From NCBI RefSeq assembly GCF_000968055.1, contig NC_022538.1, forward strand, positions 779,499 through 843,498: 64,000 nt of DNA. Direction: 5' to 3'. Shown here one piece after another: positions 3,672 to 58,531 of this stretch. This DNA is from Alteracholeplasma palmae J233 (GTDB taxonomy: Bacteria; Bacillota_I; Bacilli_A; Acholeplasmatales; Acholeplasmataceae). The position numbers and the translations under genes are program-made. The notes under the pieces are model-generated. The model did no database searches, had not been told where the DNA came from, and saw only the letters and a program-made list of their open reading frames with translations. Positions within the stretch are counted from its first letter, which is position 1. Every line of letters begins with the position of its first letter.

Positions 3672-4087
3672 AAAAATATTTAGGACTAGATTTAGGAACT
3701 AAAACGTTAGGAGTTGCAATCTCTGAAACAGGAATTATTGCAAGTAACTTAACTACCTTAAGATTTTTAGAAGATGACTATGATGATGCAATTACACAAT
3801 TGATTTCTTTAATCAATGAAAGAAAAATAGATGTTATTGTATTAGGCTATCCTAAACATATGAACAATGATATCGGAGTTCGTGGTAAAATTAGTGAAGA
3901 ATTCAAAGAAAAACTAGTTTCTAGACATCCAATAGAAGTTGTTTTATGGGATGAAAGACTATCAACAAAAACAGCATTACGTATGCTAAGTGATAATAAA
4001 AAGAAAAAGGAAAAACAAAGAGCCTTAAAAGATGAAATGGCAGCCGCTGTGATCTTACAAGGATATCTCGATTTTAAAGGAGCTTAA
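3668..4087 (+). CDS. ruvX: Holliday junction resolvase-like RuvX/YqgF
   Basis: A 139-residue RNase H-fold protein of the YqgF family. In this family the roles described are pre-16S rRNA end processing and Holliday-junction cleavage. The N-terminal GLDLGTKTLGVAIS strand carries the first acidic residue, LWDERLST follows in the middle, and DEMAAAVILQGYL near the end carries the last conserved Asp. The start overlaps the alaS stop (ATGA), and the next gene begins 1 nt after its stop. The alaS-ruvX-yrzB order is the usual one in Firmicutes. Confidence 0.95.
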   Translation: MKKYLGLDLGTKTLGVAISETGIIASNLTTLRFLEDDYDDAITQLISLINERKIDVIVLGYPKHMNNDIGVRGKISEEFKEKLVSRHPIEVVLWDERLSTKTALRMLSDNKKKKEKQRALKDEMAAAVILQGYLDFKGA

Positions 4088-4938: not shown

Positions 4939-5807
4939 AAATTTTAACAACAATTTATAGTAAAGAAGCGCTCATTGAAAATAAAGACTACCTAGATGGT
5001 ATCATCACTGGAAATGAAGTATATGCCACTAGATTAACCCATAGTTTTGAGTTAGATGAAATACTTGAAATCATAGATATAGCTAATAGGCTTCATAAAG
5101 AATGTTTCATTACCCTTAATCAAATGTACACTAATGAACACTTAGAAGAAGTAAGTCAATTTATTGATAAACTACCAATTGATAAAATCACAGGCTATAT
5201 CATCGCTGATATAGGTGTTTATATGATATTAAAGGATAAGAACTTACACAATAAAGCTATTTATAATCCAGAAACATTACTTACTAATTATTTTGATTTT
5301 AACTACTTAGCAGAAACAGGTATTTTTGGAGGCTTTGTGGCAAAAGAAATTACATTAGAAGATATCAAAATTATTAATAAGAATAAAAAGACACATACCT
5401 TTATGGTAGGTCATGGGCATTTAAACATGTTTTATTCAAAAAGAAAACTGCTTAAAAACTACGCTGACTACTTAAATAGTAAAGAAGACTTTAAAGATAA
5501 ACAAGATTTACTGATTATAGAAGAAAAAAGAAAAGATGATCCATATCCAGTATTAGAAGATTATGCTGGAACACATGTTTTTAGAAGTAAAGTTTTTTCA
5601 AGTTTAGAAGAATTAAGTGAGATTAAAAAAGCAATTGATTATCTTGTGATAGACACAATCTTTAAAGATGATGCATACTTAAAACTCATATTACCAATGT
5701 ATTATGATAATCAAATAAATAAAGAAACGATTGACCAATTACAGTCTAAATACAATGAATCCTGGGATAAAGGATTCCTATTTAATAAGACTTTTTATAA
5801 GAGGTAA
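4935..5807 (+). CDS. trhP1: U32 family protein, tRNA hydroxylation subunit TrhP1-like
   Basis: A 290-residue member of the peptidase U32 superfamily in the short YrrN/TrhP1 form: a TIM-barrel-like N-terminal region without the Cys-rich cluster seen in its neighbour. In Bacillus the TrhP1/TrhP2 pair is needed for prephenate-dependent 5-hydroxylation of U34 in tRNA, the substrate step for TrmR. It overlaps trmR by 4 nt and is followed 4 nt later by the longer partner, the same order as in Bacillus. The specific role is inferred from context; the fold assignment is firmer. Confidence 0.82.
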   Translation: MKILTTIYSKEALIENKDYLDGIITGNEVYATRLTHSFELDEILEIIDIANRLHKECFITLNQMYTNEHLEEVSQFIDKLPIDKITGYIIADIGVYMILKDKNLHNKAIYNPETLLTNYFDFNYLAETGIFGGFVAKEITLEDIKIINKNKKTHTFMVGHGHLNMFYSKRKLLKNYADYLNSKEDFKDKQDLLIIEEKRKDDPYPVLEDYAGTHVFRSKVFSSLEELSEIKKAIDYLVIDTIFKDDAYLKLILPMYYDNQINKETIDQLQSKYNESWDKGFLFNKTFYKR

Positions 5808-6993: not shown

Positions 6994-7610
6994 CTAAGTA
7001 TTACTTAATTGATGGCGAGCACATTGAATGCCAAATTGAGTATAAGAAAATTAAAAACGCATATATTAGACTTAAAAATAACATTTTATATGTTAGTGCT
7101 AATAAGTATATTAAAATAGAAGATATTGATCGCTTTGTTATAGAAAAATATCCCTTACTTAAGAATAAAATGGACAAAAAAGTTCATACAGAAAAGTATC
7201 AACTTTGGGGTAAAGTTCTAAGCGAAGATGAATTTTACTTAAAAAACGGATTAAAAATATCAGATAAAAATTACTATCTCATATTAAAAAATGAAGTTAG
7301 GTTAAAAACAGAAGAAATATTTGAAAAAATAAGTTCTAATTTACAAAAACTTGGATTAAACAAAGTACCTTTTATCTACAAGAAATTAACTGCTAAATAC
7401 GGTAGTTGTCACATTGTAAAAAAAGAAATTACTTTAAACATATTCTTAGCTAAAATAGATCCTATCTATTTAGAATATGTGATATATCATGAGTATGCTC
7501 ATTTAATTGTTCCAAATCACTCACAAAAGTTTTATCATGTATTAGATCAATTAATGGCAAATCACAAGGAAATTGAAAAAGAATTAAAGAAGATACCAAT
7601 TATATTTTAA
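6984..7610 (+). CDS. YgjP/M48-like zinc metallopeptidase
   Basis: A 208-residue protein with the zinc motif HEYAHL in YVIYHEYAHLIVPNHSQKF, as in the YgjP-like metallopeptidase (DUF45) family. The N-terminal half is a beta-rich region (IKNAYIRLKNNILYVSA) typical of the same family. There is no signal peptide or membrane segment, so it is likely cytoplasmic. The substrate is unknown. It overlaps trhP2 by 10 nt and ends 41 nt before greA, which has its own promoter. Confidence 0.82.
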   Translation: MSITKYYLIDGEHIECQIEYKKIKNAYIRLKNNILYVSANKYIKIEDIDRFVIEKYPLLKNKMDKKVHTEKYQLWGKVLSEDEFYLKNGLKISDKNYYLILKNEVRLKTEEIFEKISSNLQKLGLNKVPFIYKKLTAKYGSCHIVKKEITLNIFLAKIDPIYLEYVIYHEYAHLIVPNHSQKFYHVLDQLMANHKEIEKELKKIPIIF

Positions 7611-7616
7611 AATTAT

Positions 7617-7624
7617 GTTATAAT
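7617..7624 (+). promoter_or_regulatory. Extended -10 promoter for greA
   Basis: TATAAT (7619-7624) is preceded by TG, with no clear -35. It lies 28 nt before the greA start, which has an AAGGAGG site at 7638-7644. Confidence 0.6.
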
Positions 7625-7651
7625 ATATAGGATATTTAAGGAGGCATTTTT

Positions 7652-8125
7652 ATGGCAGTGAAAAAAGTATACGAACTTACCCAAGCGGGTGTAGATAAGT
7701 TAAAAGAAGAATTAATAGAATTAAAAGATGTAAAAAGAAAAGAAAATCTTGAAGCTTTAAAGGAAGCTAGAGAACAAGGGGATTTATCAGAAAATGCTGA
7801 TTACGATGCTGCTAGAAATGAACAAGCACGTATTGAATCAAGAATTCTTGAAATTGATACAATCTTAAAAAATCTTAAAATTATCAAAACATCAGATGAT
7901 GCATCTGTAAATATTGGTAAAGTAGTTAAATTAAAATTTGTTGAAAAAAACCAAATTAAAGAATTTCATCTAGTAGGTACAATCGAAACTGATCCAATAA
8001 CTGGCAAAATTTCTATTGAATCACCACTAGGAAAAAGTATTAAAGGTCATGAAAAAGGCGAAACAGTTCTAGTTAAATCTGAAACTGGTAGAAACTTCCA
8101 CGTTGAAATATTAGAAGTAGCTTAA
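7652..8125 (+). CDS. greA: Transcription elongation factor GreA
   Basis: Rescues backtracked RNA polymerase by stimulating transcript cleavage. The 157-residue length is typical. The N-terminal coiled coil carries GDLSENADYDAARNEQ with the acidic tip residues, followed by a C-terminal FKBP-like domain (SIESPLGKSIKGHEKGE). It has a strong AAGGAGG ribosome site 7 nt before ATG and its own -10 element. In Bacillus greA also follows the trmR-trhP genes, so synteny supports the call. Confidence 0.97.
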   Translation: MAVKKVYELTQAGVDKLKEELIELKDVKRKENLEALKEAREQGDLSENADYDAARNEQARIESRILEIDTILKNLKIIKTSDDASVNIGKVVKLKFVEKNQIKEFHLVGTIETDPITGKISIESPLGKSIKGHEKGETVLVKSETGRNFHVEILEVA

Positions 8126-48654: not shown

Positions 48655-48700
48655 TGGTACACCCTCACGGGCTCGAACCGTGGACCCAATGATTAAGAGT
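48655..48700 (-). repeat. Left attachment site: 3' half of tRNA-Lys
   Basis: A partial tRNA-Lys copy from CCA (48655-48657) through the T arm to the anticodon loop. It matches the complete tRNA at 58456-58531 with a 21-nt identical core (48680-48700 versus 58481-58501). Three differences occur in the acceptor and T stems, two of which compensate each other. Sequence identity ends after the core. Confidence 0.92.
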
Positions 48701-48722
48701 GAGTGCATCTAAATAAACTATT

Positions 48723-48750
48723 AAAGCCTAATAAAATGGGCTTTTTATTT
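48723..48750 (+). terminator. Terminator-like hairpin at the element's left end
   Basis: Six-base arms 48723-48728 and 48739-48744 are followed by a T-rich run. It would lie just inside the attachment site in the circular form, before the first gene. Confidence 0.6.
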
Positions 48751-48767
48751 TAAAAAGGAGTGATACA

Positions 48768-49004
48768 TTGCAGTATGAAAGACTAGATAGCATCATCCAA
48801 GCGCATCTTGAAACATTAAAGCGCCCTGGCTTAGTCTCAATAGTGAAAGAAGCTTATTATTGTTTAGACAATGATGCTAAGGCAACCTTGCAATATCTTG
48901 AGTATCTTAATTGGAAAGATTATGAAATAAAAGAAGCAATCCGACTTTTAGCAAGATATGAAAACAATCGAATAAAATATCCTGAACTGATAAATAGTAA
49001 TTAG
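48768..49004 (+). CDS. Small element protein of unknown function
   Basis: 78 residues, helical (RPGLVSIVKEAYYCLDNDAK), with no named family. The start is TTG 48768, chosen because AAAGGAG lies 7 nt upstream and the nearest ATG is out of frame. It is the first gene of the element's left end. A strongly structured 200-nt region follows it. Confidence 0.65.
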   Translation: MQYERLDSIIQAHLETLKRPGLVSIVKEAYYCLDNDAKATLQYLEYLNWKDYEIKEAIRLLARYENNRIKYPELINSN

Positions 49005-49200
49005 AGAGTCTACCGTAGTTCAGGACGCTAGGCTCTCTAATTGCTATTTTTTATAGCAAGGGCTTCATACTTCTCCTGGGGAGTTATCCCACTCCCCTAC
49101 TTATCCTTTCTAATTTAATCAATCGAATTATATTTATACTTTTTTACTACTTAAGTTCCCTTTAATAATTCGATTGATTAAGTCAAAAAGGGACTTAAGA
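49001..49200. other. Multi-hairpin intergenic region with pseudoknot topology
   Basis: Five stems lie in 200 nt: 49001-49012/49029-49040 (12 bp, one G-T), 49041-49047/49053-49059 (7 bp, T5 loop), 49078-49083/49092-49097 (6 bp, G/C-rich), a perfect 17-bp pair 49115-49131/49165-49181, and 49151-49163/49188-49199 (one bulge). The last two interleave as in an H-type pseudoknot. It could be a single-strand origin, packaging signal or regulatory RNA. Confidence 0.7.
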
Positions 49201-49214
49201 AAGAAGTGAATAAA

Positions 49215-49541
49215 ATGGAATATGATGTATCAGAAATTAGACAAGAAATAGAACTTGTCAAAAAAGGACTTGAAGACTTAGTGTGTTATTATAGTCTGAA
49301 AACTAAAAAGTTTAGAGTATACGTATCAAAATCAATTACAGCTGAAGTTGAAAGTTCTTTAGATGTTGAGTTCGAAACTGCACGTGAAGTTGACATTTAT
49401 TATAAAAAATTAAATAAAGATTTATCTTATGCATTTTGGGAGTTATTCAAAGATAACTACTTTGATGATTATATGTGGGATATGCGTCAATCAATAAAAA
49501 GATATTTAAAAAAGGTCAAACAATGGGAAAAAAATGAATGA
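49215..49541 (+). CDS. Element protein of unknown function
   Basis: 108 residues with no recognised domain. The N-terminus is helical, the middle beta-like (KKFRVYVSKSITAEVESS), and the C-terminus helical and basic (SIKRYLKKVKQWEKNE). ATG 49215 has a weak AAGAAG site; a GTG at 49206 is also in frame. It overlaps the DUF2786 gene by 8 nt. Confidence 0.65.
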   Translation: MEYDVSEIRQEIELVKKGLEDLVCYYSLKTKKFRVYVSKSITAEVESSLDVEFETAREVDIYYKKLNKDLSYAFWELFKDNYFDDYMWDMRQSIKRYLKKVKQWEKNE

Positions 49542-50064
49542 TAAAAAGATAGAACTATTAAAAAAACTAAAAGAATTATCAGAGCGCGGAGTAGGTGGCG
49601 AAAAAGAAAATGCCACTAAAATGTTAACAAGACTACAACGTAAATATGACGTCAGCGATATAGAAATAGAAACAACTGAAGAAAAGTATAGAGAATTTAC
49701 AGTACCACGTTTTAAACTCTATAATAGATTGTTTTGGCAAATTATAGGAACGTATGGAATTAGCAAATATAAAAAAACTAGAAAAAGAGACGTCATACTA
49801 ATTAATTGTACTGCATCATTACAATTAGAAATATTGGCTAAGTTCCAATTTTTCTATACGTACTTTCAAAAAGATATAGAAACGTTTTTCTTAGCGTTCA
49901 TCTCTAAAAATGAACTATGGAGTAAAACGTCTAAAGAACCCACTGAAGTTACAGCTGAAGAGCTATTGGAACACCTAAAAGCAAGACAACTAGCACAGAA
50001 GTTACAAAAGTATGAATACGATACAGATAAATTAAAAAATGAGCAATTACAGCTAGATATATGA
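49534..50064 (+). CDS. DUF2786-type protein
   Basis: 176 residues. The N-terminal 40 residues (LLKKLKELSERGVGGEKENATKML, split by the usual AxxAL-like helix and KYDVSD) match the DUF2786 domain, which is common in phages and plasmids and usually followed by a second unknown domain, as here. Function is unknown; association with DNA metabolism is often assumed. It overlaps both neighbours' translation signals, giving a tight operon with the next gene. Confidence 0.75.
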   Translation: MNDKKIELLKKLKELSERGVGGEKENATKMLTRLQRKYDVSDIEIETTEEKYREFTVPRFKLYNRLFWQIIGTYGISKYKKTRKRDVILINCTASLQLEILAKFQFFYTYFQKDIETFFLAFISKNELWSKTSKEPTEVTAEELLEHLKARQLAQKLQKYEYDTDKLKNEQLQLDI

Positions 50065-50078
50065 AAGGAGACAAGCAC

Positions 50079-50873
50079 ATGAGAAAAAAGGCAAACACAC
50101 AGACAAAACAACAACTAAGCCATAAGTTTAAGCCTAGCTATCGTGGGCTTGTTTCTATCTTAGATAGTAAACTAATTGAAGAAGATATACTAGATTCGTC
50201 TAAGCTTGTTTATGCTGGTTTATACGCATCTATTCCAAGAACACAACGACTAGAAAATATTAGTAAAGAAGTTAATCATAAATATTATGGCCGTAAGAAA
50301 AAACTGATAGATCAATTAGGGATTGCTGAAAGTACATACTATACTGCAATCAATGAGCTAGAAGAAAAAGGATATATAAAAACAGTCGTTAACCCAGATA
50401 AAACGGGTTATGTTTTCTATTATTTATTGAAAGAAATTGATATGGCCAACGCTGTATCTTTTGTCACCTCAGAAATGCTACAAAGAAAATATATCAAAAC
50501 AAAACGACGTCTTAAAACGTTAAGCCCTAAAGCTAAAATTACATTAGGCCGATTACATAACTTAGCCACAAGCGATTATAATAGAAACATTGAAGTAGAT
50601 ACTGAAAGCCTAATCAAAGAGTTAAAATTGGCACGTAGCACAACTTTTTACATGATAACAAAACTCTTAAGCTGTGGAGCAATGAAACGCAAGGAAAAGC
50701 AACATGGCCTATATAAATTATTGTTATTAGATGAGTATACACAATATCAAATTATAGTTAATCAGTCAGGTGATGCGAGCTATAAGCAATCGAACTATAA
50801 GAATATGAACAACTACCCAGATGATGCGCTAGATCTAATTGGTGATGCATTTGGACTAAAGAAATATAACTAA
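50079..50873 (+). CDS. Double winged-helix protein, putative replication initiator
   Basis: 264 residues with two copies of a winged-helix pattern: GRKKKLIDQLGIAESTYYTA then INELEEKGYIKTV (about residues 70-105), and SLIKELKLARSTTFYMITKL then LSCGAMKRKE (about 185-215). Such pairs occur in plasmid and phage initiators that bind iterons. Three 31-bp-spaced repeats and two terminators follow its stop, which supports that role. No HUH or rolling-circle motif is visible. The start is ATG 50079 after AAAGGAG; an ATG at 50061 precedes the ribosome site. It could also be a transcription regulator. Confidence 0.62.
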   Translation: MRKKANTQTKQQLSHKFKPSYRGLVSILDSKLIEEDILDSSKLVYAGLYASIPRTQRLENISKEVNHKYYGRKKKLIDQLGIAESTYYTAINELEEKGYIKTVVNPDKTGYVFYYLLKEIDMANAVSFVTSEMLQRKYIKTKRRLKTLSPKAKITLGRLHNLATSDYNRNIEVDTESLIKELKLARSTTFYMITKLLSCGAMKRKEKQHGLYKLLLLDEYTQYQIIVNQSGDASYKQSNYKNMNNYPDDALDLIGDAFGLKKYN

Positions 50874-50876
50874 AAT

Positions 50877-50898
50877 AACTGCTTAGAAATAAGCGGTT
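50877..50898 (+). terminator. First terminator after the putative initiator
   Basis: Eight-base arms with one G-T pair right after the stop codon, then a T-rich but not pure T stretch. Confidence 0.5.
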
Positions 50899-50991
50899 GT
50901 TTAGGTTTAATCTATCACATGATAACTTGTTAGAACATAGAAAACAAAGGCTTTAAACGCCAAAATAAGCACTATAAATAAAAGAAAAATG

Positions 50992-51030
50992 AAGTATCAG
51001 AGCATATAAACTCTAGATACTTTTTATTTT
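50992..51030 (+). terminator. Second terminator after the putative initiator
   Basis: Arms 50992-51002 and 51011-51022 (11 paired bases, one bulge), then a T-run. Confidence 0.8.
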
Positions 51031-51038
51031 AGTTGCAT

Positions 51039-51131
51039 AGTCTAAAAAACGGAATTGAAAGATATAAAAAGTCTAATAAATGGAATTAAAAAGGTAATTT
51101 AGTCTAAGTTTCGGAGAGAAAGTATAAGTTT
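51039..51131 (+). repeat. Three iteron-like direct repeats, 31-bp period
   Basis: AGTCTAA begins at 51039, 51070 and 51101, exactly 31 bp apart. Each is followed by a GGA-containing, A-rich tail. Three helical turns per unit would place bound proteins on the same face. It lies between terminators and the structural genes, a likely origin or operator. Confidence 0.75.
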
Positions 51132-51580
51132 TTAAAAAGTGTTTATTATATAAAGAATTAAAGAAGGAACCGATTAGATGCAGTTAAAAATTGAAATAAT
51201 AGTCCGCTTAACTATTTAAAAACTGAAAGATTAGATATGAGCATTTTATTTTTAATAACTTCAATCATTTTAAGAGTTAAGTTCAAAACATTTAAACATT
51301 TTTTAAATGGGGGGGTATTGTGAAAGTTCTATGACGTCAGCATCTAAGAAGTGACTACTATTATAATTTTATGATTTAAAAACTTCTAAACGTTAGTTTC
51401 TATGACGTCATAAAGTTATATAGTTAACATATACTAAACTTATAAAATTATATGTTGTCTAGTTCTAAAAAGACTTTTTATTTTTAATCAAGAAAAGTTC
51501 GACTTTTTTAAATTATCAAAATTAACGAAGTTAAACTGAGTGCAAGAGATTTAATCTCAATATAAAACGGAGGATTAAGA
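51132..51580. other. Gene-poor origin-like region of the element
   Basis: It holds a G7 run (51309-51315), two TGACGTCA palindromes (51332-51339 and 51403-51410) each preceded by TTCTA or TTTCTA, a small terminator-like hairpin at 51493-51510, and a GAGATT/AATCTC hairpin at 51546-51558. A 28-codon frame from ATG 51237 could encode a hydrophobic peptide but has no good ribosome site. No larger gene is supported. Confidence 0.55.
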
Positions 51581-53206
51581 ATGAAAAAAATATTATATAT
51601 TTTCTTAGCGGTATTAAGCACGCTAGGAATTACTGCGATGTTTGCATCTAAGACGTTTGCAGCTGAAATGAATGCTGATATACCATTTACAACAACAAGT
51701 GATGGATACTTAAGATTTTTAGCATTAACTGATGCGACAGAAAATAGGTTTAAACAAAAGCCGTTATATGATGCTATTGGTTCTGGTAATAGTTTTACAC
51801 TATATGTGCAAGATGGAACTGAAACTACATTTTCACTACATGTTGGGGCAGAAAAACAAGTCTATAAAACTAAGGCTAAAGAGATTGTATTAACCCAAGT
51901 TGCTGATTTTCAAGCTTTAGAAGTTACTACAGATGGAACAAAATGGAATGCTTTAAATGCGCCTTTAAAAATGTCTGTTATGAACCCTATGACTGAAATT
52001 AGCGTACATAATCCTATGGGATTTGATTCCCAAGGTGGTAACGACACTGGTGGAGGCAATCAAGGTGGAGCGTCTAAATTACTATTAGACGGTATGGCAG
52101 TTGTCAATGATATCAATTTTCCATACAGCATAAATGATATCGCAAGAATTGCTAAACTTAGAGCAATAGATCCTAAGGATGGAGATATTACAAATAAAGT
52201 TGTAATTACTAATGAAAACTTTAGTGGGAATGAAAATAAATTAGGTACATATTACGTTGAATATTCCGTAACTAATTCTAGTCAAAATACAACAACTAAA
52301 AAGATATCTATTTCTAATCATGATTTAACAGGACCTGATATTGATGGACCAAGCCAATATAAAGTAAGATATACTGATTCGTTAAATGTTACTGAGTTTT
52401 TAAAGAATTATAGTGCAACCGATAAAATTGATGGTGATACTGCAGTTTATATCGAAAAAAATGATTATAAAAATAGAACATTTGGCAAGTTTAGTATTGT
52501 AATAGCTTCAAAAGATAAAGCAGGTAATATATCTAGAAAAAACGTAGTAATTGACTCGTACGATAATCTAGCACCTAGTTTTGAAGATAAAACTGTTGGT
52601 CCAATCGTGCTTGATTTGAATGCTGAAATTACAGATAAAATATTATTAGAAGGATTAACTGCAACAGATGAAATTGACGGAGATGTGACATCATTAATAA
52701 CTGTTGTAACTCACAATATCGTTTCTGGAAGCAAGGGAGTATATGAAGTTGAATATCTAGCTGTAGATAAGTCTGGTAATGGCAGAACTCATTACAGAAC
52801 ATATAGATTGGAATCTAACATATATACAGCATTTTGGGTTGACAGAAATATTGTTTCATTAGACGCATTAAAAACACTTACAATAGACCAAATTGCAAGA
52901 ATATATGCAACTTATGAAGGAATTGAAATGAAAAGTTATAAAGTTATAACTGATAAGTATAGTGAAAATGCATCAGTAGAAGGACATTATTTAGTATCAA
53001 TGTTGATTACTGATAAAGAAGGGAAAGAACATAAAGTTTCTAGAACATTATCAGTTGCAGGCCTAAAAAAAGATGAAGATGTCAAATTAGGTTTTTGGGC
53101 AACTATCTGGAGAGCGATTAAAAACTTCTTTATTGACGTAATTAATTCTATTCTAAACTTTTTAAATAAGTTAGGCTTAAATACAAAATTGATTGAAAAA
53201 AAATAA
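51581..53206 (+). CDS. Secreted element protein with Ig-like repeats (adsorption-type)
   Basis: 541 residues. A clear signal peptide (KILYIFLAVLSTLGITAMF, cleavage after TFAA region near residue 28) leads to an N-terminal domain, a Gly/Asn-rich linker near residue 155 (GGNDTGGGNQGG), then three Ig-like repeats with the DGDITNKVVITN and DGDVTSLITVV hallmark of DUF5011-type domains. The C-terminus is amphipathic and partly hydrophobic (FWATIWRAIKNFFIDVINSI). The layout of linker and domains recalls the pIII adsorption proteins of filamentous phages. Host binding is inference. GGAGG precedes ATG. Confidence 0.7.
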   Translation: MKKILYIFLAVLSTLGITAMFASKTFAAEMNADIPFTTTSDGYLRFLALTDATENRFKQKPLYDAIGSGNSFTLYVQDGTETTFSLHVGAEKQVYKTKAKEIVLTQVADFQALEVTTDGTKWNALNAPLKMSVMNPMTEISVHNPMGFDSQGGNDTGGGNQGGASKLLLDGMAVVNDINFPYSINDIARIAKLRAIDPKDGDITNKVVITNENFSGNENKLGTYYVEYSVTNSSQNTTTKKISISNHDLTGPDIDGPSQYKVRYTDSLNVTEFLKNYSATDKIDGDTAVYIEKNDYKNRTFGKFSIVIASKDKAGNISRKNVVIDSYDNLAPSFEDKTVGPIVLDLNAEITDKILLEGLTATDEIDGDVTSLITVVTHNIVSGSKGVYEVEYLAVDKSGNGRTHYRTYRLESNIYTAFWVDRNIVSLDALKTLTIDQIARIYATYEGIEMKSYKVITDKYSENASVEGHYLVSMLITDKEGKEHKVSRTLSVAGLKKDEDVKLGFWATIWRAIKNFFIDVINSILNFLNKLGLNTKLIEKK

Positions 53207-53225
53207 GTAGTGGAGTGATGCATTA

Positions 53226-54341
53226 ATGAAAAAGATAGTAATGATCATGTTGTTGATAGTAAGCACATTAGTGCTCACTATCACACCTGCTTATGCTAAA
53301 GAAACAGATATAAACGACGAGCGCATAGATGTTGAAATTATTAGAGATAATACGGTTGTTGAAATTAAACATATGAAAGACTGGAGAATATCACATGCGG
53401 TTGTTGAGTATGCATTCTTAGAAGACGGAATAAATGTGGCCCAATTAGGCACAATTTCTGTTAAAGATAATAAGTTTACAGTGGATTCAAAATGGACGGC
53501 CATTAAAGTGCACCAGGTTAAAAGATTAGTTGGCCAAGTTTATTATACGCATATGGCCCAAGGTAAAAATACTATTGGAAGTTTTGCAAATGTAAAAAGA
53601 CAGAACATTGTAGAAATACAAACAGTTGCAGTTAAAACGATTAAAACAAAAATATTAACGGGAATGTCTCCGACGTCACCACTGCATAAATATTATGAAT
53701 TTTATTTTAAATTTGATAAAAAACACGATAAATTAGCAGCAATCGATGCTAGTTACGTTATAGAAAAAAAGTGGTGGTTTATTGGAACAGGAAAAGAAAA
53801 CATTGAAAAGGAAATATCTATATATGATGGCGTATTTATGAGCGGTTATGTTAGTAATTCTATAGGAACAACCTTTCTACCAACTCCAGCAACAGAGTCA
53901 GTTAAAGGCTTAGAAAAAAATACTGACAAAAATATTGATGCTAATTATGTAGCTAGAGTCAGTGGTGATATTGGTACCTGGGGAAATAATTACACAATTT
54001 CTAATTTTGTTATCTTACGCGTTAAATACTATCTGGATGGCGAGTTCATTATTGATGACGTCATTAATAACCCTACCAGTCCACAAGATGACTTGAACTA
54101 TTTACAATCATTAGTTGAGCAAATTAAAAAACTAATTGAATATATTCAGGGGTTAAATTGGTCTAATATTCTCTTATGGATTGTTGCTATATTATGTATC
54201 CCTGTTGTTATAGGTTTAATTTTAATTATATGGTTCTTTATTAAAATAGTTATATCAAGTATTAAACTTGTTTTTAAAACGATTAAAAGCATACTTAAGT
54301 TCATTAAATGGGTACTTATTCCAAACAAGAAAAGGAGATAA
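53226..54341 (+). CDS. Signal-peptide protein with C-terminal membrane anchor
   Basis: 371 residues with signal peptide MKKIVMIMLLIVSTLVLT and probable cleavage at AYA/KE. A beta-rich outside domain of about 270 residues follows. The end carries a long hydrophobic stretch (ILLWIVAILCIPVVIGLILI) and further amphipathic basic helices. No family recognised. Position between the Ig-like protein and the ATPase resembles minor coat proteins of filamentous phages (pVI or pIII position). It starts 19 nt after the previous stop. Confidence 0.68.
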   Translation: MKKIVMIMLLIVSTLVLTITPAYAKETDINDERIDVEIIRDNTVVEIKHMKDWRISHAVVEYAFLEDGINVAQLGTISVKDNKFTVDSKWTAIKVHQVKRLVGQVYYTHMAQGKNTIGSFANVKRQNIVEIQTVAVKTIKTKILTGMSPTSPLHKYYEFYFKFDKKHDKLAAIDASYVIEKKWWFIGTGKENIEKEISIYDGVFMSGYVSNSIGTTFLPTPATESVKGLEKNTDKNIDANYVARVSGDIGTWGNNYTISNFVILRVKYYLDGEFIIDDVINNPTSPQDDLNYLQSLVEQIKKLIEYIQGLNWSNILLWIVAILCIPVVIGLILIIWFFIKIVISSIKLVFKTIKSILKFIKWVLIPNKKRR

Positions 54342-54347
54342 ATAGAT

Positions 54348-54527
54348 ATGCAAGCATTAATAATTATTATAGTTGTACTAATTGTACTGTTTACGCTCAG
54401 TTATCTAGATTATAAATTATATGATAGTAAAAAAGTTCCTAAAGGAACACCTGACATTGTCCAGGATATTAAAAACGGAGTGAAAAAGAAAAGAGAAAAT
54501 AAGGCATTTAAGGAGGCAAGAAAATGA
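54348..54527 (+). CDS. 59-residue single-helix membrane protein
   Basis: It starts at ATG 54348 after AAGGAGATAAAT. The N-terminus is a membrane helix (ALIIIIVVLIVLFTLSYL), followed by a charged tail rich in Lys. The size fits a small coat or assembly protein, but the helix is at the very start, unlike a standard major coat protein. It overlaps the next start by 4 nt. Confidence 0.7.
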   Translation: MQALIIIIVVLIVLFTLSYLDYKLYDSKKVPKGTPDIVQDIKNGVKKKRENKAFKEARK

Positions 54528-54703
54528 TTATCACAGCAATAGCATTAATTTATAACATTATTCGTAAGTCTTTAAAGTTCATTTTATACACATTCCCAAA
54601 ACGAGTATATCTCGGCTTAAAAGTTTTATATAAATGGACTAAAATTATTTTTATTAAGTTGTTTATTCCAAAAAGAAAGATAGTAAAAATAAGTAAAAGA
54701 TGA
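54524..54703 (+). CDS. 59-residue basic membrane-associated protein
   Basis: ATG 54524 lies inside the previous stop (ATGA), with AAGGAGG upstream. The sequence has a hydrophobic start (IITAIALIYNII), then amphipathic helices with many Lys and Arg (KRVYLGLKVLYKWTKIIFIK). It could be a coat protein whose basic residues face DNA. It overlaps the ATPase start by 4 nt. Confidence 0.68.
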   Translation: MIITAIALIYNIIRKSLKFILYTFPKRVYLGLKVLYKWTKIIFIKLFIPKRKIVKISKR

Positions 54704-55623
54704 GCCTAGAAAGTACAGCCTTTAAACTAGATAAAATAGGCGATTGGAATGTTAGCTTAAATAGAAAACTTGCTAGGTTTATTTCTAAAAAACTCATTAG
54801 ATACACTGATTGGGTTATGGATGAACGCATATACAAACGCATGCGAGATATGACAGCGCCACTTCACTGGGCTTGGATAAATGGTTGGCTTGCATCTTTA
54901 AAAAAGGCATATGATGAGTTCCCGTTCAAAAAAGAAGGTTTGTACATTGTCACAGGCCTTCCTGGTGCTGGTAAGTCTAGTGTAGCTGCAGAGATTATGC
55001 ATCGTATGTTTTTAGCAACAGGAAAAGGATCATATATAAATACTGCAATCGAAGTACCAAGAGTAGATGAAAATAATTTTAGAAAATATACATTACATCC
55101 AAGATATGAGATAACAGATTTTTTTGATGAAGGTAAAATTGTAGCTTATCCTAATCACTATCTATTTGCAGCACTTCATATTGATGAAGCACATAGAATA
55201 TGGCAATACCGAGTAAACAATTCTAATGAATATATGAACTCATTTAAAGGGTTCATGGAGTATGCTGTCGGAGTCAGACAATACATTGGCCATATTTTTG
55301 CTTATACGCAAATGGATAAGGTTGACGTCCAAATGATGACATTAGCAGAAGCCATTGTTGATGTTCAAGTTAAAAAAGGATTTGATTACGAATATTGGAG
55401 AGAAACAGGAGAATTTAGAATCACAATTCTAGGTTGGGATTTAGTATTTCATAAAGTGGTAACAAATGGTTCAGGTGGATATACAAAAGCTGAATATAAA
55501 CGCGTATTTTTAAAACGCACAATGGATTTAAAATACTTTGATAGTTACAACTTAAGACAAGAGTTAAAAGGCGAGAAAATGGATAATAGATATCAAAATA
55601 GCATTAAAGAGGTGAGAGCATGA
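54700..55623 (+). CDS. Zot/pI-like assembly ATPase
   Basis: 307 residues. Walker A GLPGAGKS lies at 86-93 and Walker B ALHIDEAHRIW near 158-168, matching the zonular occludens toxin/pI family that powers filamentous phage extrusion. A later SerGly-rich turn and the KAEYKRVFLKRTMD end follow. Typical members carry a membrane helix after the ATPase domain; here none is seen, but the next gene encodes one. It is coupled to the upstream small genes and overlaps the next start by 4 nt. This is the strongest marker that the element is a virus. Confidence 0.75.
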   Translation: MSLESTAFKLDKIGDWNVSLNRKLARFISKKLIRYTDWVMDERIYKRMRDMTAPLHWAWINGWLASLKKAYDEFPFKKEGLYIVTGLPGAGKSSVAAEIMHRMFLATGKGSYINTAIEVPRVDENNFRKYTLHPRYEITDFFDEGKIVAYPNHYLFAALHIDEAHRIWQYRVNNSNEYMNSFKGFMEYAVGVRQYIGHIFAYTQMDKVDVQMMTLAEAIVDVQVKKGFDYEYWRETGEFRITILGWDLVFHKVVTNGSGGYTKAEYKRVFLKRTMDLKYFDSYNLRQELKGEKMDNRYQNSIKEVRA

Positions 55624-56000
55624 CATGGAGTGAAATACTTAACATATCTGGGCAAGTTATATTTTGGATTGCTCTAGTAGCGTTATCTGTATTACTTCTA
55701 AAACTAGTGTTTTTAGTGGCTGTGTTTTTGTTTGCAACAGCAATCTATATAATTCCCTGGAAACAAACAAAAATTGATTTAAGGGCAATATCTGAGACGA
55801 AAATAGAACAGCGCATATATCTGGATGAATACCAGTTCACAATAGCAAGTGAACAGCACAGAAAAGAATTAGAAGAAAAAGTAAAAGTAATAAAAGACGT
55901 CGAAAGTAAGATAAGAAAAAGAGCTGCAGAACTTAAGAGTATTACAGCTCAGATTGAACGAGTTGAAAATGGTGACAAAAAAAGTAAGAAAAAAGCGTGA
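55620..56000 (+). CDS. Membrane protein with coiled coil, putative ATPase partner
   Basis: 126 residues. Two close hydrophobic helices (VIFWIALVALSVLLLKLVFL, then VAVFLFATAIYIIPW) precede a charged coiled coil (about 75-120). It overlaps the ATPase gene by 4 nt, and may provide the membrane anchor that the ATPase lacks. This is inference from position. Confidence 0.68.
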   Translation: MTWSEILNISGQVIFWIALVALSVLLLKLVFLVAVFLFATAIYIIPWKQTKIDLRAISETKIEQRIYLDEYQFTIASEQHRKELEEKVKVIKDVESKIRKRAAELKSITAQIERVENGDKKSKKKA

Positions 56001-56043
56001 TTTTATATATACTTTAGTATATATATTTAAAATAATATATTTG

Positions 56044-56057
56044 GGCGCGCCGTTAAC
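56044..56057. other. Adjacent palindromes GGCGCGCC and GTTAAC
   Basis: An 8-bp all-G/C palindrome followed directly by a 6-bp palindrome in an otherwise very A/T-rich intergenic gap; just upstream is a 10-bp A/T hairpin (about 56005-56026). Confidence 0.5.
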
Positions 56058-56075
56058 AACTAGGAGGACATAAAA

Positions 56076-56552
56076 TTGATTACAAAAGTTGTTATATTAA
56101 TGATTAGAATTCCATTTCTATTGTTGGTTAGATTATTTGTTCCGTCAAAGTTAAAACAGAAAAAAAAGAATCACATCGGAAAAATATATGCCGTTAATCC
56201 TAAACATATTGTAAAAAAAAGAGATTGGGAATCATACGAAAAGATTAAAGGAAAGAATGCAAATAATGATAGACTAGTTATGGTCGGAGTTCAAAAGAAA
56301 AATAAAAAAGTTCAAGTATCTAATTTAACGACTAAAGCAACATCTGATCAAATTGATAAGAAACACAAAGTTAGATTATATGAAACTTATAAAAATAAAA
56401 AAAGTTATGTAGATACTAATACAATTGGTAAAAGTAGATTAACAGGTAAAAATTTTAAAGTAGGGCAATCGCCTTTAAATAAACCTATTAAAAAGGCAAA
56501 GGATAAAGACATACAAGATTATCAAAATGCACGAAAAGTAAGAGGTAGATAA
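56076..56552 (+). CDS. Basic membrane-anchored element protein
   Basis: 158 residues. An N-terminal hydrophobic segment (VVILMIRIPFLLLVRLFV) is followed by a highly basic, low-complexity domain rich in Lys and Asn; the net charge suggests contact with DNA or membrane lipid. The start is TTG 56076, with TAGGAGG 9 nt upstream. No family recognised. It ends the structural block and is followed by a hairpin. Confidence 0.65.
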   Translation: MITKVVILMIRIPFLLLVRLFVPSKLKQKKKNHIGKIYAVNPKHIVKKRDWESYEKIKGKNANNDRLVMVGVQKKNKKVQVSNLTTKATSDQIDKKHKVRLYETYKNKKSYVDTNTIGKSRLTGKNFKVGQSPLNKPIKKAKDKDIQDYQNARKVRGR

Positions 56553-56559
56553 AAAAAGA

Positions 56560-56584
56560 GTCCCTTTAATTAAAAAGGGACTTA
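56560..56584 (+). terminator. Hairpin after the structural block
   Basis: Nearly perfect stem from 56560 to 56584 without a following T-run. Its arms repeat sequences found at 49157-49166 and 49185-49197 at the other end of the block. Confidence 0.55.
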
Positions 56585-56725
56585 GTTGTATGTGGCAGTA
56601 GCTAAGACTACCAACCCGGCATGTACGCCTCGTTATTATCTTATAATAATAATTTAAAAATGTCAATTTATCCACATATTTTATGGGAAATTATATGTTG
56701 ACATTGTAATATAATAGTATATGCA

Positions 56726-56737
56726 GGTTGCGCAACC
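56726..56737. promoter_or_regulatory. Perfect 12-bp palindrome upstream of the recombinase gene
   Basis: GGTTGCGCAACC lies 35 nt before the recombinase ATG, just after A/T-rich promoter-like sequence (TTGACA at 56698 and TATAAT at 56710, wrongly spaced for each other). It is a candidate operator. Confidence 0.5.
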
Positions 56738-56771
56738 CTTTTAAAAATACAAACATTGAAAGGGAAACATC

Positions 56772-57647
56772 ATGACAATAGAAGAATTAATAACTAGATA
56801 TATTAACGAAACAAAAAATAGAAAAAGAAGCGATACTCTTATTAACGAACCATCAGCATTTAGACCTATACTAAAATGCTTAAAAGCATTAAATATTGAA
56901 GATGCAAACGACTTAAGATATGAAGATGGAGAAAGAGTTATAGAGTGGTTGAAAAATAATACACGTTCAAAAAATACTACAATTAATAAACGGATAGGAT
57001 ATATCAAAACAGCTCTAAGACATTCAAAACTAATGAGCAATACATTTCTTTTAGTTCCTAAGTTGCCAAACGATACTGAACCATTTGTACCTATGCAACA
57101 TGAAGTATTAAAAGCGGCCATAAAATTATCTGAAATAGAAGTGAATAAAAATTCCTGGGTATACAATGCAATATTTATACTACTATATGATACCGGCTGC
57201 CGAATTAATGAACTTTTGAATATCCAGAAACATAATGTATTAATTGACGTCAATACAATAGTATTAGAAACACAAACAACAAAAGGTAGACAACAAAGAT
57301 ATGTTTACTTTACCAGTGTTAATGTAGATCTAATTAAAAAATTGATAAGGTCTACACCTGGAACGTATATATTTTGGAATTATATAAAAAATAGAAAAAT
57401 GAGTAGGGATGATTTTAAAAATTACACAAGAAAAATGAAAGAAAAATTAAATGTAGATAGATTTCATGCTCACCAAATAAGAAAAAAATTTGCAACAGAT
57501 ATGGTAGTAGATGGTGCTAATCTAAAGACTGTACAAACAATACTTGGTCATAAAGATTACAAAACTACAGAGAACTATGTTAAATATGATGCAATAATTG
57601 CGCGTAAAGAGTATGAAAAAATTATGAATAAGAAAAAAAGCCGATAA
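56772..57647 (+). CDS. Tyrosine recombinase (integrase)
   Basis: 291 residues with an N-terminal SAM-like DNA-binding domain and a C-terminal catalytic domain. The catalytic set is R144 (DTGCRINELL), K171, H234 and R237 (FHAHQIRKKFA), H260 (LGHKDYKT) and Y269 (ENYVKYD), all present. It should integrate and excise the element at tRNA-Lys. It lies about 0.8 kb inside the right attachment site, with the regulator pair between. GAAAGGG precedes ATG. Confidence 0.93.
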   Translation: MTIEELITRYINETKNRKRSDTLINEPSAFRPILKCLKALNIEDANDLRYEDGERVIEWLKNNTRSKNTTINKRIGYIKTALRHSKLMSNTFLLVPKLPNDTEPFVPMQHEVLKAAIKLSEIEVNKNSWVYNAIFILLYDTGCRINELLNIQKHNVLIDVNTIVLETQTTKGRQQRYVYFTSVNVDLIKKLIRSTPGTYIFWNYIKNRKMSRDDFKNYTRKMKEKLNVDRFHAHQIRKKFATDMVVDGANLKTVQTILGHKDYKTTENYVKYDAIIARKEYEKIMNKKKSR

Positions 57648-57654
57648 AGGCTTT

Positions 57655-58056
57655 TTATTTTCTTACTCCTGATACTAATTCAACATAAAATTTTGAAAAT
57701 TTTAAGGTTTCAAAAATCCCGTTAGTAAATTCAATTGTATATGTTTGATTTTTATATAGTCCGTATTCAATTTTAGTTTCTCTTTTGAGTATAGAACCGT
57801 TATTATCTGTATAGTTGACTCTTAATACGATTTCTTTTATATCTCTTTTTGGAATAACTGTAGCAATCACTTTGGTCCAACCGTTGTGAGTATAAGATAA
57901 ATCAAAATCATTGCGGCTTAATTCTTTTGATTCAATTAAAGGAGTAGAACTGTCAGTTAACCCTTCTTTATTGAAAACTAGTTTATCGAAAGCTATAAAA
58001 GCTGCAATAACAATAACTAGAACAAATAATGTTTTTAATGTACTTGATTTTTTCAT
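57655..58056 (-). CDS. Small membrane-anchored or secreted protein
   Basis: 133 residues. The N-terminal hydrophobic segment (TLKTLFVLVIVIAAFIAF) lacks a lipobox, so it is an uncleaved anchor or signal. The rest is beta-rich (KVIATVIPKRDIKEIVLRVN), similar to FxLYD or lipoprotein-like domains without a firm match. It follows the XRE gene by 20 nt with AAAGGGG upstream, so it is cotranscribed with the repressor and may alter the lysogen surface or exclude related phages; this is inference. Confidence 0.7.
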   Translation of the reverse strand: MKKSSTLKTLFVLVIVIAAFIAFDKLVFNKEGLTDSSTPLIESKELSRNDFDLSYTHNGWTKVIATVIPKRDIKEIVLRVNYTDNNGSILKRETKIEYGLYKNQTYTIEFTNGIFETLKFSKFYVELVSGVRK

Positions 58057-58076
58057 TTAGATATATCCCCTTTAGT

Positions 58077-58298
58077 TTATCTGATTTTTTTACTTAACTT
58101 TTCTTGAATAGATTTGAAATCTATCAATTCTTCAATAGTTATATCCATTTTTTGACATATTAAAACTAGTGTTTCAATATTTGGTTCTCTCGTACCACGT
58201 TCATATTGAGATATGGCAATTTGTGAGACACCTAATAGTGTAGCTAAATCTTGTTGTGATAGTTTTTTTCTCTTTCTAATAGCTCTTAAGTTTAACAT
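58077..58298 (-). CDS. XRE-family transcription regulator (phage-type repressor)
   Basis: 73 residues. The helix-turn-helix covers LSQQDLATLLGVSQIAISQY, followed by ERGTREPNIETLVLICQ, a standard Cro/C1-type domain, with a short C-terminal helix and no protease or sensor domain. AAGGAGG precedes ATG (58298). Two near-identical palindromes upstream (58312-58326 and 58344-58358) are likely binding sites. Position next to the recombinase and att site fits a lysogeny repressor. Confidence 0.88.
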   Translation of the reverse strand: MLNLRAIRKRKKLSQQDLATLLGVSQIAISQYERGTREPNIETLVLICQKMDITIEELIDFKSIQEKLSKKIR

Positions 58299-58311
58299 AA
58301 ACCCTCCTTTT

Positions 58312-58358
58312 AATTCAAAATGAAGTAAAAAACATTGACATTCAATTCAATATGAATT
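58312..58358. promoter_or_regulatory. Two operator-like palindromes of the XRE regulator
   Basis: AATTCA-N3-TGAATT at 58344-58358 is perfect; AATTCA-N3-TGAAGT at 58312-58326 has one mismatch. The centres are 32 bp apart. Confidence 0.65.
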
Positions 58359-58363
58359 ATTAT
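58335..58363 (+). promoter_or_regulatory. Outward promoter overlapping the operator
   Basis: TTGACA (58335-58340), 17 nt, TATTAT (58358-58363) on the plus strand. The perfect palindrome sits inside the spacer. It points at the right attachment site, and in the circular form would read into the left-end genes. Confidence 0.7.
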
Positions 58364-58418
58364 TAGTGTAAGCAGTTGTCGAGACGGCTTATTAATCAAA
58401 GGGTTATTTAATAAATTA

Positions 58419-58442
58419 AGCCCTTTGATTCCTCAAAAGGCT
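58419..58442 (-). terminator. Element-borne terminator of tRNA-Lys
   Basis: Arms 58419-58428 and 58433-58442 (one mismatch) end in a minus-strand T-rich run. It closely resembles the left-side terminator at 48611-48638. A competing inverted repeat uses 58394-58403 and 58421-58430. Confidence 0.6.
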
Positions 58443-58455
58443 ATTACAGTTATTT

Positions 58456-58531
58456 TGGTGCACCCTCACAGGCTCGAACTGTGGACCCAATGATTAAGAG
58501 TCATTTGCTCTACCAACTGAGCTAAGGGTGC
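58456..58531 (-). tRNA. tRNA-Lys (anticodon CTT)
   Basis: A complete cloverleaf on the minus strand: acceptor GCACCCT/AGGGTGC with encoded CCA, D arm GCTC/GAGC, anticodon stem AATGA/TCATT with loop CTCTTAA (anticodon CTT), and T stem CACAG/CTGTG. Its 3' half is supplied by the element; the displaced 3' half remains at 48655-48700. Confidence 0.96.
58481..58501. repeat. Right attachment core
   Basis: 21 nt identical to 48680-48700, running from the anticodon loop into the variable region of tRNA-Lys. Strand exchange should have taken place here. Confidence 0.88.

What the first reader, a model, noticed from the sequence alone, without database searches (positions are those of the whole stretch)
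48680..58501. A 9.8-kb temperate element with filamentous-phage-type morphogenesis genes in a mollicute-like genome
The sequence shows tRNA-Lys direct repeats, a complete tyrosine recombinase, an XRE repressor, an iteron-type origin region, and a coupled block of two signal-peptide proteins, two 59-residue membrane proteins, a Zot/pI-like ATPase and a membrane partner. Known filamentous mollicute phages are smaller. The known temperate mollicute plasmavirus L2 integrates but is enveloped. This element mixes traits of both, and of a plasmid. Virus identity is inference.
Basis: partly seen in the sequence, partly recalled or inferred. Interest (0 to 1): 0.9.

Follow-up and report, generated by a model that had tools for sequence, protein, structure and literature searches.

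The report
Plasmavirus provirus with filamentous-phage assembly motor
This stretch is a dormant virus in a wall-less bacterium, related to the enveloped virus L2, and its DNA-pumping motor looks related to the one filamentous phages use, a tie that the literature we could search does not report.

Summary
The element is real: a 9,801-bp unit in tRNA-Lys(CTT) with att repeats, a tyrosine integrase, a reverse XRE repressor and a coupled morphogenesis block. It is not a filamentous phage but a provirus of the plasmavirus kind. Four of its proteins (Ig-like envelope protein, ATPase, integrase, repressor) have homologues in Acholeplasma phage L2 in the same order. Strong ATPase relatives occur in 13 of 160 genomes of the host's order, mostly beside a tRNA gene. 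Such proviruses are known in outline (ICTV profile PMC12662186), so the element is a new member of a known kind.

The surprise is the ATPase. Profile comparison ties the plasmavirus ATPases (L2 ORF3) to the Zot/pI assembly ATPases of filamentous phages: 98.4% over 142 columns, against 19-47 columns for P-loop controls, with matching invariant residues beyond the P-loop. Published statements say plasmaviruses share only the integrase with other viruses. The evidence is sequence only and uneven: some filamentous-phage pI proteins show no tie, PDB profile searches missed Zot, and a structure prediction failed. The 'iteron origin' is not supported; a perfect DnaA box sits where L2 has ori1. Particles, excision and function are untested.

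The parts
48655..48700 (-). att repeat, far copy: 3' 46 nt of a tRNA-Lys gene
   Evidence: 93% identical to the right copy, with a compensatory T-stem pair change
48768..49004 (+). 78-aa first gene; possibly the counterpart of L2 ORF6 (weak)
   Evidence: hhalign against family F5 only 17.5% probability over 63 columns
49206..49541 (+). 111-aa protein, unknown
   Evidence: no Pfam match over cut-off
49534..50064 (+). 176-aa protein shared with the G004 element
   Evidence: 45.6% identity over 160 aa; phrog_421, unknown function
50061..50873 (+). 270-aa tandem winged-helix protein, probable replication initiator
   Evidence: phrog_270 replication initiation E 6.5e-9; winged-helix matches at 81-112 and 161-212; 31% to the A. 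hippikon element
50874..51580 (.). intergenic region before the envelope gene; corresponds in position to L2 ori2; no significant iterons
51581..53206 (+). 541-aa signal-peptide surface protein with Ig-like repeats, homologue of L2 ORF13 envelope protein
   Evidence: L2 30.8% identity, E 2e-21; PF16403 41.6 bits
53226..54341 (+). 371-aa signal-peptide protein with C-terminal membrane segments; shared with G004; sits where L2 has ORF14 and ORF1
   Evidence: 36% over 341 aa to G004; no match in the phage collection; L2 ORF14 no significant match
54348..54527 (+). 59-aa protein with one membrane span
54524..54703 (+). 59-aa basic protein, no clear membrane span by the hydropathy cut
54700..55623 (+). 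307-aa Zot/pI-like ATPase, homologue of L2 ORF3
55620..56000 (+). 126-aa membrane partner of the ATPase (L2 ORF4 position)
   Evidence: a 111-161 aa protein with a membrane span follows the ATPase in 18 of 19 maps
56076..56552 (+). 158-aa basic protein
   Evidence: 46.9% over 130 aa to the G048 element
56668..56676 (+). perfect DnaA box TTATCCACA, same position as the box in L2 ori1
   Evidence: mean 0.1 exact matches in 100 shuffles of the element
56772..57647 (+). 291-aa tyrosine recombinase (integrase), homologue of L2 ORF5
   Evidence: 32.8% over 253 aa to L2; PF00589
57655..58056 (-). 133-aa membrane-anchored protein in the integrase-repressor interval
   Evidence: no family over cut-off; weak PF11044 (plectrovirus membrane protein) 13.5 bits, E 0.081, cut-off 25
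58077..58298 (-). 73-aa XRE repressor, homologue of an unannotated reverse gene in L2
   Evidence: 39.7% to the L2 ORF 5015-5431 reverse, from its residue 57 on
58456..58531 (-). tRNA-Lys(CTT), with att copy 58456-58501

Best explanation
It is an apparently intact provirus of the plasmavirus kind, integrated at the 3' end of tRNA-Lys(CTT) of an Acholeplasmataceae chromosome (A. palmae J233 by exact genome size). Shown by sequence: an L2-like core gene set and order, tRNA att repeats, repressor, integrase. Inferred: the XRE protein keeps it silent; on induction the integrase excises a 9.8-kb dsDNA circle, which replicates on the host replisome with help of a self-encoded initiator and a DnaA box; the Ig-like and the second signal-peptide protein stud the cell membrane; a Zot/pI-like ATPase, working with its small membrane partner, drives the DNA into virions that leave without lysis. 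The plasmavirus ATPase is a divergent member of the filamentous-phage pI/Zot family.
For: L2 homologues: ATPase E 2e-18, envelope protein E 2e-21, integrase E 4e-45 and repressor E 1e-12. Collinear cassettes; strong ATPase relatives (E below 1e-80) in 13 of 160 genomes of the order. A tRNA gene in 14 of 19 maps, within 0.8 kb of the repressor in 13; L2's circle carries 44 of 45 nt of a tRNA-Val 3' end. The A. hippikon provirus has a matching separate contig with a joined att. ATPase to Zot: hhalign 98.4%, score 105, 142 columns; controls by score: ABC 37.7, guanylate-kinase-like 53.6, PM2 P9 39.2, PRD1 P9 22.0, FtsK 33.3, IstB/DnaC 41.4, best of 40 column shuffles 28.7. M13/IKe pI 94.4% over 129 columns, plectrovirus pI 85.3% over 144. 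With the P-loop part removed three Zots are still the top hits. Invariant residues correspond: Walker-B E to R +8, R to Q +11, Q to D +5/+6.
Against: No read mapping, particles or induction data for this element. L2 ORF1, ORF2, ORF4 and ORF6-12 had no BLAST match in the window, nor had ORF14. PF05707 hits only 2 of 12 ATPases and weak PF05707 hits fall on other proteins, one of them a plain AAA ATPase. Under the plasmavirus profile the other Zot/pI proteins rank low, down to 86th (B5), and Pf1 is not found. With a mixed Zot+pI profile the window ATPase ranks 34th with 16.6 bits, below many weak partial matches. hhalign gave no support with Pf1 (0.3%), Pf3 (27%) or B5 (3%) pI. PDB searches with the plasmavirus ATPases gave generic P-loops, not the Zot structure 2r2a. 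The AlphaFold model is useless, pLDDT 37.
Confidence: 0.8

Rival explanations
1. A provirus of a filamentous phage (plectrovirus/inovirus) that acquired an integrase and repressor; virions would be ssDNA filaments.
For: Zot/pI-like ATPase next to small ORFs and signal-peptide proteins; a weak match of the 133-aa protein to a plectrovirus membrane protein family (E 0.081, under cut-off); a 10.2-kb inovirus is on record (bajarodino virus 74).
Against: Best viral relative of the ATPase and of the envelope protein is L2; the integrase and repressor also match L2 (they were not searched in the phage collection). No rolling-circle Rep or pIV match in Pfam, PHROGs or NCBIfam for the proteins scanned; the 59-aa and 78-aa proteins were not scanned there.
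Confidence: 0.05
2. An integrative plasmid or satellite that moves by excision and vesicle release, without making virions of its own.
For: Initiator-like tandem winged-helix protein; the A. hippikon relative is deposited as a plasmid; no capsid protein known, but that is also true of L2.
Against: Envelope and ATPase block in the order of an infectious virus. No relaxase, and transfer-type matches (TrbD, TrbH, TrbA) all far under their cut-offs.
Confidence: 0.08
3. Plasmavirus provirus, yes, but the Zot resemblance is only what any P-loop ATPase of the wider FtsK-HerA group would show; no special tie to filamentous phages.
For: Weak direct Pfam scores and generic PDB hits; no support from Pf1, Pf3 and B5 pI; the Zot profile also reaches PM2 P9 (21.7 bits; hhalign 95.5% over 141 columns).
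Against: 142 aligned columns against 19-47 for controls; the plasmavirus ATPases align with PM2 P9 over 34 columns only and with FtsK over 22; signal survives removal of the P-loop; shared invariant residues.
Confidence: 0.15

Closest known systems
Acholeplasma virus L2 (Plasmaviridae, NC_001447)
   Same: Ig-like envelope protein, ATPase, membrane-partner position, integrase and reverse XRE repressor in the same order; a tRNA 3' end on the circle; DnaA box about 105 bp before the integrase
   Different: 9.8 kb instead of 12 kb; tRNA-Lys here, a tRNA-Val fragment in L2; no detectable ORF1/ORF14 homologue, a 371-aa protein in their place; different early genes with a tandem winged-helix initiator; 28-40% identity for the four shared proteins
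Acholeplasma hippikon NCTC10172 provirus and 'plasmid 2' (NZ_LR215051)
   Same: Same cassette, homologous initiator-like protein (31%), tRNA-Trp att; joined att in a separate contig
   Different: 10.7 kb between att copies; a different second envelope-type protein; an extra gene annotated as serine protease
Zot/pI morphogenesis ATPases of Tubulavirales (M13/IKe pI, plectrovirus R8A2B/SVTS2, gut inovirus Zot)
   Same: ATPase domain aligned over 129-144 columns; signal-peptide surface protein and small ORFs upstream of the ATPase, as in M13 III-VI-I
   Different: No rolling-circle Rep or pIV match; stretch before the P-loop less hydrophobic (best 17-mer under 2.0 in all 17, against 2.7-2.8 in two plectrovirus pI); the isolated relative L2 is an enveloped dsDNA virus

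Membership tests
Plasmaviridae | Homologues of L2 proteins beyond the integrase | tested here: met
   ATPase, envelope ORF13, repressor
Plasmaviridae | L2-like gene order | tested here: met
   envelope - ATPase - membrane partner - integrase, repressor reversed
Plasmaviridae | Site-specific integration into a tRNA gene | tested here: met
   tRNA-Lys att repeats 9,801 bp apart, tyrosine recombinase
Plasmaviridae | Acholeplasma host | tested here: met
   G000 is 1,554,229 bp, the size printed for A. palmae J233; same family as the A. hippikon genome. By size, not by name
Plasmaviridae | Homologues of L2 ORF1 and ORF14 (my own stricter yardstick; not in the ICTV definition) | tested here: inconclusive
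   no significant BLAST match; a 371-aa signal-peptide protein sits there; profile-level comparison not made
Plasmaviridae | Circular supercoiled dsDNA of about 12 kb | tested here: inconclusive
   predicted circle 9.8 kb; not observed for this element
Plasmaviridae | Enveloped pleomorphic virions released by budding | not testable with these tools
   needs induction and electron microscopy
Tubulavirales (filamentous phages) | pI/Zot morphogenesis ATPase | tested here: met
   at family level; direct Pfam hit borderline; some pI proteins show no tie
Tubulavirales (filamentous phages) | Rolling-circle replication initiator | tested here: not met
   none in Pfam, PHROGs or NCBIfam for the proteins scanned
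Tubulavirales (filamentous phages) | Short membrane coat proteins next to pI | tested here: inconclusive
   two 59-aa ORFs, one with a membrane span; not scanned against families
Tubulavirales (filamentous phages) | Filamentous ssDNA virion | not testable with these tools
   needs particles

The most novel reading that the evidence does not exclude
Plasmaviruses and filamentous phages share a common virion-export machine: the enveloped dsDNA plasmavirus particle is made by a pI/Zot-type motor with its membrane partner, so budding in L2 would be a wall-less host's version of filament extrusion, and Plasmaviridae would not be an isolated realm.
Probability: 0.5. Interest if true: 0.8.

Novelty: new member of a known kind. 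Interest (0 to 1): 0.6.

Why it matters
Plasmaviridae is a one-species family whose way of making virions is unknown. The ICTV profile says that, integrase aside, it shares no proteins with other viruses (PMC12662186, read whole), and a 2024 review suggests its own realm (PMC10848233, passages). A pI/Zot-type motor conserved across the elements found would give a first evolutionary anchor, names the gene to delete, and links two non-lytic exit routes, budding and extrusion. The set of proviruses with tRNA sites, repressors and cargo genes also turns a single-isolate family into something that can be compared.

Tried and rejected
Tried without result: AlphaFold2 on a three-row alignment (window, UBA4853, L2) gave pLDDT 37, so no fold search was made. 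Seven viral-contig scans (window ATPase, alignments A2, A3, A4, L2 ORF3 and two single relatives) found only L2 itself. The genome-contig scan found one locus. PDB profile searches with plasmavirus ATPases gave generic P-loops only. No direct repeat above shuffles in the proposed iteron region. A tRNA-Lys consensus pattern found nothing in 61 genomes, not even the own gene, so the pattern was badly written. The family of L2 ORF11 (7291-7947) against the window's initiator: hhalign 72.5% over 39 columns, one winged helix only, not used.

Considered and rejected: weak ATPase hits in five further genomes. G130, G145 and G146 were read by eye as other P-loop proteins; the G101 frame has stops; the G148 frame was not shown. 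Similarity of the 371-aa protein's C-terminus to proteins in three family-f3 genomes (E 3.5e-6 to 8.3e-4): membrane segments may cause it; not used as evidence.

Because of the last, and because the statement joins provirus and motor, confidence went from 0.85 to 0.8.
Full report
What is there. Direct repeats 9,801 bp apart flank it, giving a unit 48701-58501. The right copy is the 3' part of an intact tRNA-Lys(CTT) at 58456-58531; the left copy is a 46-nt fragment, 93% identical. The differences include a compensatory base-pair change in the T-stem, so both halves look like functional tRNA ends of two alleles, as if the element brought its own tRNA 3' half and restored the gene. In five of the six relatives fetched for this (G003, G005, G009, G011, G012) a tRNA-Lys(CTT) lies within 5 kb of the same right-hand ABC-type gene; in the sixth (G001) none was found and the contig begins close by. 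Four of those five genomes have no match to the ATPase, and in G012 the match lies elsewhere. That is what empty sites would look like; the 3' flanks themselves were not compared. The genome is one contig of 1,554,229 bp, the size printed for A. palmae J233 in PMC4221730 (passages); the naming rests on that size.

Gene content. Left to right: 78 aa, 111 aa, 176 aa, a 270-aa tandem winged-helix protein (phrog_270 replication initiation, E 6.5e-9), a 541-aa signal-peptide protein with Ig-like repeats, a 371-aa signal-peptide protein with C-terminal membrane segments, two 59-aa ORFs, a 307-aa ATPase, a 126-aa membrane protein, a 158-aa basic protein, a 291-aa tyrosine recombinase, and on the other strand a 133-aa membrane protein and a 73-aa XRE repressor. 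The 59/59/ATPase/126 ORFs overlap by ATGA. Signal peptides were read by eye.

It is a plasmavirus-type provirus. Among 50,697 phage records the ATPase has one clear relative, plasmavirus L2 ORF3 (28%, E 2e-18); the other listed records have E of 3 or more (20 of 48 rows listed). The Ig-like protein hits L2 ORF13 (E 2e-21) and, at E 3e-4 to 5e-3, four Listeria phage records. Integrase and repressor also match L2 (E 4e-45, 1e-12). L2 ORF1, ORF2, ORF4, ORF6-12 and ORF14 have no significant match in the window. The order envelope - small ORF - ATPase - membrane partner - integrase - reversed repressor is that of L2. With an ATPase profile, 18 of 160 genomes of the order match at E 0.001, 13 of them at E below 1e-80; I reject the 5 weak ones. 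I mapped 19 places, including L2, near-duplicates and one excised form. A 111-161 aa protein with a membrane span follows the ATPase in 18 of 19. A tRNA gene (Lys, Arg, Glu, Trp, Val or Thr) is in 14 of 19, within 0.8 kb of the repressor in 13. The ICTV profile (read whole) already says that related proviruses sit in tRNA genes of several Acholeplasma species, and the A. oculi genome paper reports L2-like clusters (PMC4221730, passages). So the element is a new member of a known kind.

Excision in a relative. The A. hippikon record 'plasmid 2' (9,492 bp, identical to contig 2 of G025) matches the integrated element of the same genome at 99.9%, and its stretch 4481-4540 matches both att ends. 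The att spacing is 10,748 bp; about 1,255 bp are missing at the record ends. A circle, or a tandem array, therefore existed in that culture. This is not shown for the window.

Origins. A perfect DnaA box lies at 56668, 104 bp before the integrase; L2 has one at 3774, 107 bp before its integrase and inside annotated ori1. Of 17 maps with a full integrase, 9 have a perfect box within 400 bp upstream of, or at, the integrase start, 1 has a one-mismatch box, and 7 have none. The region 50874-51580 corresponds in position to L2 ori2, but I found no direct repeat above block-shuffled sequence, so the iteron claim fails.

The ATPase. Direct evidence for Zot is thin: PF05707 scores 21.6 bits against a cut-off of 20.3, hits 2 of 12 members and both of two further members tested, one over the cut-off. 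PF05707 also gives hits at E 0.001 in 31 of 295 genomes of the phylum, mostly partial; one of them is a plain AAA ATPase. I therefore compared families. A profile of 17 plasmavirus ATPases against a panel of 658 ORFs ranked a genuine Zot first among outsiders (30.7 bits), then IKe pI 21.4 and two gut Zots 18.8 and 18.4, then a control at 18.2. Other Zot/pI proteins ranked lower (16.5 bits down to 1.5, rank 86 for B5), and Pf1 was not found. The panel is not neutral: several P-loop controls were in it because earlier searches had picked them up. In reverse, a profile of nine gut Zots ranked plasmavirus ATPases as the best non-inovirus hits (31.9, 29.8, 25.0 for the window, 22.8), above PM2 P9 (21.7), but not all members scored. 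A mixed profile of Zots and pI proteins gave 26.7 for the best plasmavirus ATPase and only 16.6 (rank 34) for the window, below many weak partial matches. With the part before residue 100 removed, three Zots remained on top, at only 17.5-18.6 bits; with the P-loop removed from the Zot profile, two plasmavirus ATPases (20.0 and, for L2, 18.5) still led the non-inovirus hits, the rest mixed with controls.

Profile to profile: 98.4%, score 105, 142 columns. Controls: ABC 37.7 over 28 columns, guanylate-kinase-like 53.6 over 47, PM2 P9 39.2 over 34, PRD1 P9 22.0 over 19, FtsK 33.3 over 22, IstB/DnaC 41.4 over 25, best of 40 column-shuffled Zots 28.7. M13/IKe pI gave 94.4% over 129 columns and plectrovirus pI 85.3% over 144, equal to what the gut Zots give with plectrovirus pI (85.3%). 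Against: Pf1, Pf3 and B5 pI gave 0.3%, 27% and 3%, where the gut Zots gave 96.7%, 97.8% and 44.4%. Invariant residues line up beyond the P-loop: Walker-B E then R at +8; R then Q at +11; Q then D at +5 (plasmavirus) or +6 (Zot). PDB searches with the plasmavirus profile found generic P-loops, not Zot structure 2r2a, which the Zot profile finds at 9.7e-16. A structure model failed. I put homology to Zot/pI at about 0.85.

How it works. Shown: gene set, order, att site, homology. Inferred: repression by XRE, excision by integrase, replication by the host replisome with a self-encoded initiator, envelope proteins in the membrane, and an ATPase/membrane-partner motor that moves DNA into the particle or drives its release. 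The role of pI in filamentous-phage assembly is established knowledge (M13 record note; Roux et al. PMC6813254, passages). No experiment here shows that L2 ORF3 does the same.

What is new. Searches of the open library: none of the listings or passages I read described a Zot/pI-like ATPase in a plasmavirus. [quoted passage not shown] PMC10848233 (passages) suggests a separate realm. Most subscription papers are not in that library; the 1994 L2 sequence paper did not appear in the listings and I did not try to open it. So priority cannot be settled.

L2 corrections. L2 has a conserved reverse-strand XRE gene (about 5015-5263) that its record does not annotate, and its circle holds 44 of 45 nt of a tRNA-Val(GAC) 3' end at 5387-5431; the record's putative attP (5029-5053) lies inside the repressor gene.

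Noticed in passing
L023 (NC_001447) 5015-5263 reverse and 5387-5431: L2 carries an unannotated reverse XRE repressor; its likely attP is a tRNA-Val(GAC) 3' end, not the annotated 5029-5053.
   Followed up: yes
L030 / NZ_LR215051, L029: A. hippikon 'plasmid 2' is the excised (or tandem) form of a provirus in the same genome, with a joined att.
   Followed up: yes
L082 604-4101; L026 5074-7870; L031 7337-8356: Cargo near the integrase and repressor of relatives: GmrSD-type restriction enzyme plus D12 methyltransferase; RnlA/RnlB-like toxin-antitoxin genes with an RNase H domain beside a split integrase; a trypsin-like protein.
   Followed up: partly
L027/L028 (G004) and L034/L035 (G015): Repeated elements: G004 has near-identical copies (99.8-99.9%) side by side, one with a broken ATPase frame, and another at the other contig end that may be the same locus; G015 has two copies 12.9 kb apart with identical ATPases.
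   Followed up: partly
L077, L078, L079 (family f3 genomes): Possible new filamentous-type elements: a protein whose C-terminus resembles the window's 371-aa protein; in L077 and L078 it lies next to a protein with a P-loop-like motif and an N-terminal hydrophobic stretch (motif by eye); no Pfam match for the one tested.
   Followed up: partly
window 58077-58298 and 57655-58056: Weak filamentous-phage echoes under cut-off: the repressor's best NCBIfam match is RstR (52.4 against 80 bits), and the 133-aa protein touches a plectrovirus membrane family (13.5 against 25 bits).
   Followed up: no
G000:C1, five other places: Five further tyrosine recombinase genes in this genome; whether any marks another element was not examined.
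   Followed up: no
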